DNA of 64,000 nucleotides from Methanospirillum lacunae (GTDB lineage: Archaea; Halobacteriota; Methanomicrobia; Methanomicrobiales; Methanospirillaceae), in assembly GCF_003173355.1 (NCBI RefSeq), contig NZ_QGMY01000011.1:1-64000 (forward strand), written 5' to 3'. Of the stretch, positions 23,069 through 28,080 are shown piece by piece. Position 1 is the first letter of the stretch; each line of letters opens with the position of its first letter. The translations under genes were made by a program, and so were the position numbers. The notes beneath the pieces are model-generated. The model was not told the DNA's origin. It saw only the letters and a list, made by a program, of their open reading frames with translations, and ran no database searches.

Positions 23069-24322
23069 ATGGTGTGGACCGCTCTCACGCTTGATACCTG
23101 GCTCTCCCGTCAGCAGGCAACACTGACGGATGTCTCAGGCGCTGTTCAGAATATCATTGATGAGGTAGCAGGGAGGGGGGATGAGGCCCTTTTCGATCTG
23201 TGTGAGCGGTTTGACAAGATCAGGCTGGATCACCTCAGGGTTAGTGAAGATGAGATAGATGAGGCATACGAATCGGTAGATCCTGAGATCGTCGAAGCAC
23301 TGACTGAAGCATTTTCACGGATATGGACCTTTCACGAACTGCAAAGGCAGAAAGATCTCTGGTTTTCCGGAACTGAAGATGGCATTACACTCGGGGTCAA
23401 AACTACTCCGCTAGAACGGATCGGGATGTATGTTCCCGGGGGTCGCGCGGCATACCCCTCAACTGTGTTGATGTGTGCAGTGCCGGCCCAGGTAGCGGGA
23501 GTGAGTGAGATCATCTGTTGTACTCCCCCTCCTGCAAACCCGCTGACCCTTGTTGCCGCTGACGTTGCAGGGGTGACAGATATTTATACAGTAGGAGGGG
23601 CGCAGGCTATTGCTGCGATGGCTCTTGGAACCGATACGATTAGGCCGGTCCAGAAGATCGTAGGTCCTGGTAATGCGTATGTTACCGCAGCAAAGATGAT
23701 GCTCAGGGGAAGAGTTGAGATTGACTTTCCTGCCGGGCCGTCAGAGATCGCGATCATCGCTGATCATACCGCTCGTCCGGATTTTGTTGCGGCAGATATC
23801 CTTGCCCAGTCTGAGCATGATCCCCAGGCTGCCTCTGTACTAATCACTACAGATCCCGGTCTTCCTGAACAGGTCGGAGACTGGATCGAACGTCTCGTAG
23901 AAGAAGCCCCAAGACATGAGATCATCAGGCAGGCACTTGGCCAGTCAGGATATCTGATTGTGGATACTATTGCTGATGCGATAGCGTCATCAGACAAAAT
24001 AGCACCAGAACATCTCTCAATCCAGGTACAGGATCCTCTTCCAGTTCTGCAGAAAGTAAGGAATGCCGGTTCAATATTTGTCGGCCAGTATGCTCCTGTT
24101 GCCTGTGGTGATTATGCTTCAGGCACAAATCACGTTCTTCCCACGGCAGGAAATGCCAAACTCTATTCCGGGCTTAATGTGTCACATTTTACCAAGACAT
24201 CAACGGTCCAGATCATCTCACGTGAAGGCATAGATGCCATTGGTGATGTTGTTGAAAGACTGGCAACTGCTGAAGGATTGCATGCTCACGCAATATCATC
24301 CCGCATCAGAAGAGAGATTTGA
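23069..24322 (+). CDS. hisD: Histidinol dehydrogenase HisD
   Basis: 417 residues. It oxidises histidinol to histidine in two NAD-dependent steps. Diagnostic segments are [17 protein letters not shown] near 112, [11 protein letters not shown] near 204, [13 protein letters not shown] near 222, the zinc and catalytic region [10 protein letters not shown] near 246, PEHLSIQ near 313 and [13 protein letters not shown] near 343. It is alone among other genes; hisC lies about 8 kb away. The ATG at 23069 lacks a strong Shine-Dalgarno and may be leaderless. Confidence 0.95.
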
Positions 24323-25621
24323 TCAGAATCTGATCTGCATTACCGCTTTTTCTTCGTCTGTGAGGATTTCCTGAAGGTCGAATGGATCTGTCTGGTACAC
24401 TGACATCGGATCATAATCAGGGTACAGGTCACATTTATCGAGAATATCGATGAACTCCTTGAGAAAAACCCGCGGGATGATATCGATCCTTCCGCCAAAT
24501 GCCGTGCTCACCCGGTTTACCATTGTTCTGATAAACCTGTGTGATATCCGGCTTCTGTCAACCTCGCCGTATGCTTCTTCGTATACTCCGGCTATTCGGT
24601 GGGCGACCTCTTCAAGCCGGTCAGGACTGAATGGTTTGAGCAGAATTTGTGGCTGTCTTGGGTTTGGAAACTCTCCTTCCTTTGGTGTCTGGCCTATTCG
24701 ATCGTACAGGGGAGTAACCGGCCTCATTCCACGAGGTCCGTCATACAGCATGGGTGTTCCTGCACAGATAAGATACCAGCGGGGAAGCAAACCTCCGTCA
24801 ATTGCATCGATTATTCTGACCAGGTTCTGAAATCCCCGCTCCCGAAGATTTCGTGGGAAGGTCTGGGTTATCTCAAGTTCATCTATGGCGACCACGCACC
24901 CCTGGTATCCGGCCCCGGTTACGAACACCGGGAGTGCTTCAAGCAGAGGGAATATTGATGAGTCACCGATATCGCCTCTGATTCCTGCCTTTTGCCTCAG
25001 GTCTCTCCCGATATTTGGATCCCCGCAGAGCCATCCAATGGCTGCCTGAGAAGTCCTGAAGTCTGCTGCGTTGTTTGCAAGATAATATGTTCTGATAACA
25101 GCAGCAATAGGAGCATTGAGCAAACTGATGTCATCAAGAGCATACTCGACCTCCTGGAGGGTGAGTTCTTCAAGACGTTCAGCTGGAATCGATGACCCCT
25201 CTCGTGCACTGACCCGCTGTTCTATCCCATACAGCCAGGCATCAATGATCGATCTGAACGCCTGCTGTTCACCTCCTGCATGAAGAGATGTTGCTATCTG
25301 CGCATACAGGGATCGAAGGCGGTGAAGAGGAGCAACCGGAGATATTGCCACATGGGCAGTTACAAATCCTTTTTTTCGTGCAATCTCGAGGGCCCGTGCT
25401 ATGAGAAATGTCTTTCCGCTTCCGTACTCCCCTCTGATGAACTTGATATCTGCCCCACCTTTTGAGACAAGATCCATCTGATCCCCGATCACCTGCTCCT
25501 CAGTGGAAAGGCCAACTGCGAACCTTCCAAGTCCCTGGGCAGGAACTGTCCCACGCCTGAGTGCATTGATAATCCCGATGCTCTCAAGGACCGATGCGTC
25601 AGAGATGTCAGGGGCCTGCAT
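24323..25621 (-). CDS. BrxD-like P-loop ATPase (DUF2791 family)
   Basis: 432 residues from ATG 25621, which has GGGGAGGTG eight bases upstream; an upstream start at 25678 would add 19 residues inside the preceding gene. The layout matches the DUF2791/BrxD group: an N-terminal INALRRGTVPAQGLGRFAVG, Walker A GEYGSGKT at about 64-71, VAIDELEI (Walker B) at about 244-251 and a sensor-like CAGTP segment near 295. Relatives are part of BREX and other anti-phage or Ter-type systems, where they are thought to load or move on DNA. Here no BrxA, BrxB, BrxC, PglX, PglZ or helicase is adjacent. It overlaps the upstream TPR gene by 14 bases, so the two form a unit. Confidence 0.8.
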   Translation of the reverse strand: MQAPDISDASVLESIGIINALRRGTVPAQGLGRFAVGLSTEEQVIGDQMDLVSKGGADIKFIRGEYGSGKTFLIARALEIARKKGFVTAHVAISPVAPLHRLRSLYAQIATSLHAGGEQQAFRSIIDAWLYGIEQRVSAREGSSIPAERLEELTLQEVEYALDDISLLNAPIAAVIRTYYLANNAADFRTSQAAIGWLCGDPNIGRDLRQKAGIRGDIGDSSIFPLLEALPVFVTGAGYQGCVVAIDELEITQTFPRNLRERGFQNLVRIIDAIDGGLLPRWYLICAGTPMLYDGPRGMRPVTPLYDRIGQTPKEGEFPNPRQPQILLKPFSPDRLEEVAHRIAGVYEEAYGEVDRSRISHRFIRTMVNRVSTAFGGRIDIIPRVFLKEFIDILDKCDLYPDYDPMSVYQTDPFDLQEILTDEEKAVMQIRF

Positions 25622-27392
25622 ATCGGTACACCTCCCCGAATTCAGAGCATCCTTCCTTGTCTGCAAGATGGATCCCATGCTCTTCAGATTTTCTCATGAT
25701 TCTGTTCATCAGCCCGGCAACCCGGCGGGTTCCTGCCACTTTCCTGAGATCCATCTCATTACAGACCCGGTGTTTTCGAAGGTATTCAACGACTGCCCCT
25801 TCACCCGGATCAAGCCATGAGAAAGATATCTGTCCTGTGGTGCTCACAGAGCCCGGCGGTTTTGTTACAGGACATATCTGTGACGGAAGAAAGTCCGGAA
25901 GAACCTGAGTTTTAGATTCAACGAGGAGGGCAAAAAGTAACTCGGCAACACTACTTGCATCAACCGGTACAACTGATAACCCGGTCAGGGCATGTTTGAG
26001 AGCTTTATCCGGACTTCCTGCCTGGAGTTCATGCTTTGTTTCCATAGAAAGGCAGCGGGCGTATAATTCACGTCCCTCCTGGGAGAGCAGAGAGACATAC
26101 CCTTCAAACCGCTGGTTCAGAAATGAGATGAGATCAGGTTCAGGCTCTGGTAATGTCAGGATTTTTCCTGCTATCATTTCAAGATCCCTTGCTTTTCTGA
26201 TCGTTTTCAGAATATATCCCAGAATCTTTTTCTGTTCCCTCTTCTCACTATTCCGTCCGAGGTACTGGGCATACGAAAAACCTGAGTTTGTCAGGTCTGA
26301 TCTGAATGCCTGAAGGAAAAGGCGTTTTGCATCTTCATGTCTCCTTTCCTCCTCACACCACTCTGCGATTCCAACCAGGATGGATGGCTGAAGATCAGGT
26401 CTGATTCGGGTAAGTGCTTCGTCTAGTGCTACAGTACTTCCTCTTGTTTCCACCAGAAGCCTGCGAAAGGAGGAGAGCCATATGTTCAGATTCAAATGTT
26501 CATGGATATCCTTTCCAAAAAGAACTTGTGAATAAAGTTCAAGCGCTTGTTCTGGCCCTGATACTGTCTCGATAAGAGAAGCTCCCTGCAATTGGTATGC
26601 CGGGTTTTCACTCTTTGCGAGCCAGGTTGACCAGACTCCGAGTGCTTCCCGGATAAGTCCCTGAGATTCAAGATATCTTGCATAATGGGAGGCAAGTTCG
26701 GCAGAGGGGTTTTTCCTGAGTTGGATGAGAAACTCCTGATCTGCCTTGTCTGAATTTATGTGAACCAGGGATTCACAGGAGAGGATTATAAGATCGTGAT
26801 CATCTTTGTTTGGAGATTTTTCGATCTCGTCAGCAAGTTCCTGGAATTTTTCTGATGCCAAAAGCAGATTGAGATATATCCTGAAGCATTCGTCAGGGGC
26901 TCCTGCCTTTTTGTATCGTGCAATACCCTCTTCAAAAAATCCCAGAGCACTATAACAGAGCATGAGTCCAGCAATATCTTCACCCTTGCCCGTGAGCAGA
27001 ACCAGTCTTTTGAGCAGACAGAGTGCAGCCCGATGATCTCCCGCTCCTGTAAGGTACCTGGCATATCTTCTGATACCTTCTGTCTGATCTGGTGCCAGCC
27101 TGACTGCTTCTGCAAACTCTGCCCTGGCTCCTTCGTCTCCTTTTCGTTCAAGTACTTTTCCCAGGTATAAGCAGACTTCAGATGAATCAGGAACCTTTGA
27201 CCTGAGATCACGTAGGCAGACTTCTGCTTCATCAAGGGACCCTACACTATACAGGCAGATTGCTTCAAGGATCCGGATTCTTGTATCTATCGACCTCGGA
27301 GGAATGGATTGGATAAGGTCAAGACAGGCTGAATATTTTTCCTGCTCAAACAGCCTGAATGCCTCGGCCGTGATTCTGTCTGCGTCAATCAT
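25608..27392 (-). CDS. TPR-repeat protein with C-terminal winged-helix-like domain
   Basis: 594 residues from ATG 27392; a start at 27479 would add an out-of-family hydrophobic leader from the glycosyltransferase frame. Degenerate TPR-type helical repeats fill most of the protein (for example ALCLLKRLVLLTGKGEDIAGLMLCYSALGFFEEGIARYKKAG). After a linker near residue 510 the last 65 residues look like a winged helix, with an EYLRKH... helix, a basic RRVAGLMNRIMRKS helix and a short wing. It overlaps the glycosyltransferase by eight bases and the BrxD-like ATPase by 14. A scaffold or DNA-binding partner for the ATPase is a reasonable guess. I do not recognise a named family. Confidence 0.7.
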   Translation of the reverse strand: MIDADRITAEAFRLFEQEKYSACLDLIQSIPPRSIDTRIRILEAICLYSVGSLDEAEVCLRDLRSKVPDSSEVCLYLGKVLERKGDEGARAEFAEAVRLAPDQTEGIRRYARYLTGAGDHRAALCLLKRLVLLTGKGEDIAGLMLCYSALGFFEEGIARYKKAGAPDECFRIYLNLLLASEKFQELADEIEKSPNKDDHDLIILSCESLVHINSDKADQEFLIQLRKNPSAELASHYARYLESQGLIREALGVWSTWLAKSENPAYQLQGASLIETVSGPEQALELYSQVLFGKDIHEHLNLNIWLSSFRRLLVETRGSTVALDEALTRIRPDLQPSILVGIAEWCEEERRHEDAKRLFLQAFRSDLTNSGFSYAQYLGRNSEKREQKKILGYILKTIRKARDLEMIAGKILTLPEPEPDLISFLNQRFEGYVSLLSQEGRELYARCLSMETKHELQAGSPDKALKHALTGLSVVPVDASSVAELLFALLVESKTQVLPDFLPSQICPVTKPPGSVSTTGQISFSWLDPGEGAVVEYLRKHRVCNEMDLRKVAGTRRVAGLMNRIMRKSEEHGIHLADKEGCSEFGEVYRYAGP

Positions 27393-28080
27393 GGGCTCCG
27401 ATACCCAGTCGCAGATGAAGAAGAGTGGAAAGCATGGAAAATGCGTCTGAAGTCTGAAGCCTGGAATCTCCGGTATCATTCCAGATAACCGGAACTTCCA
27501 GAACCTGAAATCCGGCCCTCCTCATGTGCCAGAGGAGTTCTACATCGAACTCAAACCCACGTGCCCGTAAAGCTGGGAGAATTTTATCAATCGCATCCTT
27601 GCGAAAGATCTTTGCCCCACATTGGGTATCATAGAACTGCAGACCAAAAAGCAGTCTGATGATGATATTAAATGCCCTGCTCTGGACCCGTCGCGACAGG
27701 GGCTGATGAATCTCCACGGTCGAATCAGGCATATGGCGTGAGCCAATGATCCCGTCATAATCACCGATCTGGTCAATAAGGCGGAGCATCTCAGAATATT
27801 GTGTTGAATTGTCTGCGTCCATGAATCCAATCAGGGGAGCTGTTGCAGCCCTGAAACCCTCATAAACCCCACCACCCTTTCCAAGCCTGTGTGAATAATT
27901 ATTCAGACACCGGACTGTGAGATCCGGGTGCCCTGATGAGAATTCCTGTATTACTTCCGGGGTCCTGTCTGTTCCATCGCAGACAAAGATAAACTCTGCA
28001 TGTGGGTCAGAGAGATTTTGCAGAAGATGTCCTATCCGTTTCTCTTCATTATATGCCGGAATAACGATACTGTATCTCAT
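27385..28080 (-). CDS. Family 2 glycosyltransferase (dolichyl-phosphate sugar synthase type)
   Basis: 231 residues, no membrane segment. The GT2 fold is shown by IVIPAYNEEKRIGHLL at the N-terminus, FVCDGTDRT near 32, the metal-binding DADN near 89 and the acceptor-site DTQCGAKIFRKDAI near 150. This layout is that of enzymes moving a sugar from a nucleotide donor to a dolichyl phosphate for N-glycosylation or lipid-linked glycans. Donor and acceptor cannot be read from sequence. It overlaps the TPR gene by eight bases. Confidence 0.88.
   Translation of the reverse strand: MRYSIVIPAYNEEKRIGHLLQNLSDPHAEFIFVCDGTDRTPEVIQEFSSGHPDLTVRCLNNYSHRLGKGGGVYEGFRAATAPLIGFMDADNSTQYSEMLRLIDQIGDYDGIIGSRHMPDSTVEIHQPLSRRVQSRAFNIIIRLLFGLQFYDTQCGAKIFRKDAIDKILPALRARGFEFDVELLWHMRRAGFQVLEVPVIWNDTGDSRLQTSDAFSMLSTLLHLRLGIGAHD

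What the first reader, a model, noticed from the sequence alone, without database searches (positions are those of the whole stretch)
24323..27392. Two-gene TPR/winged-helix + BrxD-like ATPase module outside any BREX locus
Seen: a DUF2791-type P-loop ATPase with intact Walker A and B overlaps by 14 bases a 594-residue TPR protein ending in a winged-helix-like domain. Known: BrxD/DUF2791 ATPases occur in BREX and Ter-linked conflict systems with several other core genes. Here none of those partners is present; the neighbours are a glycosyltransferase and hisD. Inference: the pair may be a compact, stand-alone DNA-linked system, possibly defence, segregation or surface regulation, with the TPR protein as sensor and DNA reader.
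Basis: partly seen in the sequence, partly recalled or inferred. Interest (0 to 1): 0.6.

Follow-up and report, generated by a model that had tools for sequence, protein, structure and literature searches.

The report
BREX-like helicase machine fixed in methanogens
A pair of neighbouring genes in a methane-making archaeon, together with a helicase gene found elsewhere in the same genome, appears to form a three-part DNA machine built from components otherwise known from virus-defence systems, but inherited like an ordinary core gene set.

Summary
The pair is real. The 451-aa ORF is a BrxC/BrxD-family ATPase (Pfam 377 bits; NCBIfam BrxD 354.6 against a cut-off of 350). The 594-aa protein is a TPR superhelix with a C-terminal winged helix. 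Gene order and strand are the same in 33 of 33 loci measured. There is no PglZ, hence no BREX, in the genome.

"Stand-alone two-gene module" is not the whole story. Every other BrxD-like ATPase locus I examined (BREX-2, Shango and others) also carries an SF2 helicase, nearly always as the next gene. Here a BrxHI-like helicase (~705 aa) lies elsewhere in the chromosome. Among 132 well-completed Methanomicrobiales genomes, 83 carry pair and helicase, 49 carry neither, none carries only one. At least three independent gains or losses moved all the genes together, and their evolutionary rates co-vary.

Best reading: a vertically inherited three-protein apparatus (TPR/wHTH adaptor, ORC/Cdc6-like BrxD ATPase, BrxHI-like helicase) encoded at two loci. 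Wide retention, single copy, housekeeping surroundings and no virus or plasmid copies favour genome maintenance or fixed immunity over a mobile defence island. Physical interaction and function are untested.

The parts
25608..27392 (-). TPR/winged-helix protein, 594 aa: TPR superhelix residues 4-497, disordered linker 499-521, C-terminal winged helix 529-591
   Evidence: ORF; Pfam TPR_14 1e-8; AF2 model pLDDT 89.7; 30-sequence alignment in which the C-terminal ~70 residues are the most conserved part
25608..25826 (-). coding region of the C-terminal winged-helix domain, found only in this protein family within the phylum sample
   Evidence: Profile A3 found in 37 of 295 Halobacteriota genomes; 35 are orthologues of this protein and the other two are marginal hits; strands and helices in the AF2 model
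24323..25678 (-). BrxD-like AAA+ (PF10923) ATPase, 451 aa by longest reading; 14-bp overlap with the TPR gene if the ATG at 25621 is used
   Evidence: tree: clade with BrxD, not SngB; Walker A and B motifs
27385..28080 (-). GT2 glycosyltransferase, upstream gene on the same strand; context only, not claimed as part of the system
   Evidence: Pfam Glycos_transf_2 1.2e-20; its cluster occurs in 19 of 36 loci
23069..24322 (+). hisD, convergent neighbour; context only
   Evidence: Pfam Histidinol_dh 2e-164; its cluster occurs in 24 of 36 loci

Best explanation
The pair is two thirds of a vertically inherited three-protein DNA-processing apparatus of Methanomicrobiales. The TPR protein binds DNA through its C-terminal winged helix and a partner (or the ATPase) through its TPR superhelix. 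It recruits the ORC/Cdc6-like BrxD ATPase, which oligomerises and loads or gates a BrxHI-like superfamily-2 helicase encoded elsewhere in the chromosome (G000:C7:341926-344019). Shown here: family membership of all parts, fixed gene order of the pair, near-perfect co-occurrence and rate covariation with the helicase, vertical inheritance. Inferred: complex formation, helicase loading, and the biological role. Role: most likely genome maintenance (repair, fork or transcription-replication conflict processing) or a chromosomally fixed innate immunity, rather than a mobile defence island.
For: ATPase family and BrxD affinity; tree puts the pair clade (100/100) with bacterial BrxD (97/97) away from SngB; 35-41% identity to a BREX-2 BrxD, 23-26% to SngB. 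In every other context examined, the ATPase locus also encodes an SF2 helicase, nearly always as the next gene, and none of the 14 pair loci tested has one. A BrxHI-like helicase in trans: PADLOC BrxHI 517 bits over nearly the full profile in G063 and 399 bits in the window's genome; tree: its own clade (SH 99) beside BrxHI, apart from the SngC and Lhr clades. Profile: 83 both, 0 pair only, 0 helicase only, 49 neither among 132 genomes >=90% complete. At least 3 independent co-transitions on a PyrG tree, including a loss inside the window's genus. Rate covariation corrected by PyrG: ATPase-helicase 0.91, TPR-helicase 0.91, against 0.26-0.40 for hisD. Helicase motifs intact. Published view that BrxD is an ORC/Cdc6 AAA+ ATPase in a tight dyad with BrxHI and may load it (PMC12839542). 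No hits in phages or viral contigs; purifying selection.
Against: No physical or genetic interaction data. The profile is partly explained by common descent: f2, f3 and f5 group together, so the effective number of independent events is about three. Rate correlations use non-independent pairs of 15 genomes. Eight genomes of <90% completeness hold only one component. The TPR protein and helicase evolve fast (dN/dS about 0.24 and 0.16 vs 0.025 for PyrG), unusual for a core repair factor and compatible with an arms race. The ATPase model is of medium quality (pLDDT 79.6) and Foldseek hits to ORC/Cdc6 and other AAA+ proteins are weak (E about 0.01). Helicase loading is only a hypothesis for BREX itself.
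Confidence: 0.62

Rival explanations
1. The trio is an antiviral defence system: a BREX-2/Shango-like core with a new sensor subunit (TPR-wHTH) that has become fixed in the chromosome of these lineages.
For: All characterised relatives of both enzymes are antiphage systems (BREX-2; Shango, shown in PMC10250203). The slot upstream of the ATPase is held by TerB-type SngA in Shango, and in the window's own genome that SngA carries N-terminal TPRs. Repeated loss shows dispensability. Fast evolution of the TPR protein and helicase. All three trio-less genomes of the window's genus, G024, G046 and G058, carry a strong PglZ match.
Against: Single-copy presence in nearly all genomes of three families including small genomes; housekeeping surroundings at both loci; no close virus or plasmid copy; enzymes at separate loci, unlike defence operons; no recognisable nuclease, methylase or phosphatase effector at the loci examined.
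Confidence: 0.3
2. The pair works alone as a two-protein DNA-linked ATPase/adaptor (regulator or STAND-like switch), and the BrxHI-like helicase has the same distribution only by shared ancestry.
For: Only the two genes are physically linked; the helicase is at variable distances or on other contigs.
Against: All of the at least three independent changes are shared; rate covariation far above the hisD control; the homologous ATPase-helicase dyad is a strong rule elsewhere.
Confidence: 0.15
3. The pair serves the neighbouring glycosyltransferase (surface or N-glycan regulation).
For: A GT2 gene is upstream on the same strand in many loci; its cluster occurs in 19 of 36.
Against: In other loci (for example L106, L115, L116, L118) the gene directly upstream is not this GT2 and the pair is unchanged; the family pedigree is DNA-linked.
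Confidence: 0.03
4. A degraded remnant of a BREX or Shango locus.
For: BrxD equivalog score only just above cut-off in the window.
Against: Intact motifs, purifying selection, 111 genomes with the pair, no other remnants at the locus.
Confidence: 0.02

Closest known systems
Type 2 BREX (Pgl) BrxD-BrxHI dyad
   Same: ATPase clusters with BrxD (tree 97/97, 35-41% identity); helicase matches the BrxHI profile over nearly its full length
   Different: No PglZ in the window's genome and no BREX core gene at the locus; helicase gene unlinked; TPR-wHTH subunit upstream instead of PglZ; vertically inherited; PMC12839542 reports no archaeal type 2 BREX
Shango (SngABC)
   Same: Three-part logic: upstream adaptor, PF10923 ATPase, SF2 helicase; coexists in the same genome at C6
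   Different: Adaptor is TPR-wHTH, not TerB; profile comparison of the two adaptors finds no homology (0.4% probability); ATPase and helicase fall outside the SngB and SngC clades
ORC/Cdc6-type AAA+ helicase loaders
   Same: BrxD is classed there in PMC12839542; ORC, Cdc6 and DnaA structures appear among weak Foldseek hits
   Different: No sequence-level match; partner is an SF2 helicase, not MCM
Lhr helicases
   Same: SF2 core; weak WH_Lhr match
   Different: Separate clade; no DEAD_assoc domain hit; Lhr is present as well in the same genomes

Membership tests
BrxD / PF10923 ATPase family | Full-length PF10923 match over curated cut-off with intact Walker A and B | tested here: met
   376.6 bits vs 22.2; GEYGSGKT and VVAIDELE
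BrxD / PF10923 ATPase family | Groups with BrxD rather than SngB in a tree | tested here: met
   Pair plus BrxD 97/97 against SngB 100/100; BrxD itself is not one clade because of two long branches
Type 2 BREX system | PglZ phosphatase | tested here: not met
   No PF08665 match in the window's genome; few pair-bearing genomes have one
Type 2 BREX system | PglX, BrxC and PglW in the locus | tested here: not met
   No neighbouring gene conserved across the window and 35 relatives is one of them (conserved neighbours identified by clustering, Pfam or by eye); not searched genome-wide
Type 2 BREX system | BrxD and BrxHI in one operon | tested here: not met
   Helicase at another chromosomal place in all loci checked; about 46 kb away in the Methanospirillum relatives G012 and G052
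Shango | TerB-type SngA upstream of the ATPase | tested here: not met
   No TerB match in the TPR protein; SngA profile not homologous
Shango | SngC helicase directly downstream | tested here: not met
   hisD, or another unrelated gene in relatives, follows the ATPase
BrxHI helicase family (trans gene) | Near full-length match to BrxHI profile, better than SngC | tested here: met
   517 vs 357 bits (G063), 399 vs 289 bits (own genome)
BrxHI helicase family (trans gene) | Falls inside the bacterial BrxHI clade | tested here: inconclusive
   Own clade (SH 99) beside BrxHI (98) and Lhr (100); the order of the three is not resolved
TOTE conflict systems (TPR-OB-TBP-effector) | TPR fused to an OB/cold-shock domain, with a TBP-like gene and effector | tested here: not met
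   C-terminal domain is a winged helix; no such neighbours; TPR-S hit below cut-off
Antiviral defence | Reduces virus or plasmid success | not testable with these tools
   Needs an experiment

The most novel reading that the evidence does not exclude
The BrxD-BrxHI pair known from BREX-2 exists in methanogens as a domesticated or ancestral housekeeping machine with its own TPR/winged-helix targeting subunit, which would imply that these defence systems borrowed, or gave rise to, a cellular helicase-loading apparatus.
Probability: 0.4. Interest if true: 0.78.

Novelty: new variant of a known kind. Interest (0 to 1): 0.6.

Why it matters
What BrxD and BrxHI do is unknown even in BREX. A natural system that keeps only these two enzymes plus one adaptor, without methylase or phosphatase, is a minimal setting in which to test whether BrxD loads or gates BrxHI. 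It also shows that NCBI's 'BREX system ATP-binding protein BrxD' label, whose cut-off the window protein just passes, can be misleading in methanogens: it points to a BREX system that is absent. If the role is genome maintenance, it adds a DNA-processing machine to archaeal core biology and a direction for the traffic between housekeeping and defence.

Tried and rejected
Solved-structure sequence search for the ATPase: nothing. Winged helix in Pfam and PDB: only sub-threshold HTH hits. Foldseek on the TPR protein returns generic TPR proteins (OGT, Ski3, Ctr9, Naa15) and does not identify a function. Homology of the TPR protein to Shango SngA: rejected. TOTE membership: rejected. Glycosyltransferase partnership: not conserved enough. 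Phage, virus and plasmid origin: no phage or viral-contig hits; the listed plasmid hits are bacterial and haloarchaeal BrxD- and SngB-type proteins at about 35% identity or less. BREX remnant: rejected by absence of PglZ and by purifying selection. The codon-based rate estimate failed for the more distant pair G052/G012 for most genes.

Full report
What is there. On the minus strand, the window encodes a 594-aa TPR protein (27392-25608) followed, with a 14-bp overlap if the ATG at 25621 is used, by a 451-aa (longest reading) PF10923 ATPase (25678-24323). The ATPase scores 376.6 bits against BrxC_BrxD and 354.6 against NCBIfam's BrxD equivalog (cut-off 350); PADLOC prefers BrxD (360 bits) to SngB (141). 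AlphaFold shows the TPR protein as a long helical-repeat superhelix, a disordered linker and a C-terminal winged helix. That winged helix is its most conserved segment and, apart from two marginal hits, was found nowhere else in 295 Halobacteriota genomes.

The pair is conserved and linked. In 199 Methanomicrobiales genomes, orthologues of both genes occur together in 111, all in three of the six families (f1, f4, f6). In 33 of 33 loci measured they are on the same strand in the same order, and in 32 they overlap or abut. Walker A is present in 33 of 33. Outside the order, 295 genomes of the phylum yield only generic TPR hits and distant ATPases. There is no hit in phages or viral contigs. GC content is in line with neighbouring genes. 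The pair sits between pyrG and hisD in many relatives (pyrG named by eye). The genus is Methanospirillum by the nearest named loci (93% and 89% identity).

Not BREX, not Shango. The genome has no PglZ. It does have a genuine Shango locus on contig 6 (SngA with TerB domains and N-terminal TPRs, SngB, SngC), which serves as an internal control. Every non-pair PF10923 locus examined (Shango in archaea and bacteria, bacterial BREX-2, a three-gene set in family f12 and others) also encodes an SF2 helicase, nearly always as the next gene; the 14 pair loci compared have none (annotated BREX-2 and Shango regions). In the tree the pair ATPases form one clade (100/100) that joins BrxD (97/97) and not SngB.

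The missing helicase is in trans. Searching the order with a BREX-2 BrxHI helicase returned a distinct ~705-aa protein in the pair-bearing families and only Lhr- or SngC-type proteins in the others. Against the PADLOC BrxHI profile it scores 517 bits over positions 3-689 of 698 (G063) and 399 bits (window's genome, G000:C7:341926-344019). A tree separates it from SngC and from Lhr, both of which can occur in the same genomes, and places it beside BrxHI, though the exact branching among BrxHI, Lhr and this clade is not resolved. It often has a thioredoxin gene directly upstream and otherwise housekeeping neighbours such as lysS and infB (the last two named by eye from sequence).

Profile and rates. 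With a profile of this helicase the scores are bimodal: at least 670 bits (one contig-edge fragment at 420) where I count it present, all in the pair-bearing families, and at most 425 bits in every other genome, those hits being SngC or Lhr. Of 132 genomes at least 90% complete, 83 have pair and helicase, none has only one, 49 have neither; over all 199, 107 have both, 4 only the pair, 4 only the helicase by my criteria, and all eight exceptions are assemblies of under 90% completeness (sets compiled by hand from the tables). A PyrG tree needs at least three changes, with starred branches forcing three: a loss inside the window's own genus (G024, G046, G058), a loss in G001, and the f2/f3/f5 group. 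The Fisher p-value should not be read literally, because genomes are related. Pairwise distances of the three proteins, corrected for PyrG, correlate at 0.83-0.91, against 0.26-0.40 for the neighbouring hisD. dN/dS between the two closest species is about 0.24 (TPR), 0.16 (helicase), 0.04 (ATPase) and 0.025 (PyrG): all under purifying selection, the adaptor and helicase fast.

Mechanism. Published analysis classes BrxD as an ORC/Cdc6-type AAA+ ATPase, notes its tight dyad with BrxHI and suggests a helicase-loading role (PMC12839542). Foldseek of the medium-quality model is consistent with AAA+/ORC but weak. By position, the TPR-wHTH protein takes the slot of SngA in Shango or PglZ in BREX-2. 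I infer an adaptor that brings the ATPase to DNA, and an ATPase that loads or gates the helicase. Vertical inheritance, single copy, split loci and housekeeping surroundings favour a cellular role or fixed immunity; pedigree, dispensability and fast adaptor evolution keep defence open at about 30%.

Verdict. Observation confirmed; interpretation partly supported. The finding becomes more interesting, not less: a two-gene curiosity turns into a candidate three-protein, two-locus machine with a near-perfect phylogenetic profile.

Noticed in passing
G000:C6:53250-59275 (L120:7251-13276, minus strand): The window's own genome carries a full Shango locus (SngA-SngB-SngC); its SngA (832 aa) has N-terminal TPRs as well as TerB_N, TerB and TerB_C domains.
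   Followed up: partly
L165, L166, L167 (family f12): A three-gene set of a 258-aa protein (no Pfam match for the copy in L166), a PF10923 ATPase and a Lhr/BrxHI-type helicase; neither BREX nor Shango by gene content, possibly another adaptor-ATPase-helicase system.
   Followed up: partly
G024, G046, G058 (same genus as the window): The three Methanospirillum-genus genomes that lack pair and helicase each have a strong PglZ (about 211 bits, 877-887 aa frame), as do several other trio-less genomes; possible replacement or chance.
   Followed up: no
L116:12485-13462 and other f4/f6 loci (L115, L127, L129): An OB-fold plus HD-domain protein (YhaM-like) lies directly downstream of the ATPase in several f4 and f6 genomes.
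   Followed up: partly
L194:10043-10462 and many helicase loci: A thioredoxin gene is directly upstream of the trans helicase (13 bp gap in the window's genome); its cluster is present in 18 of 34 loci.
   Followed up: partly
window:24323-25678: NCBIfam's BrxD equivalog cut-off (350) is passed by a hair (354.6), so automatic annotation will name this BREX BrxD although no BREX exists in the genome.
   Followed up: yes
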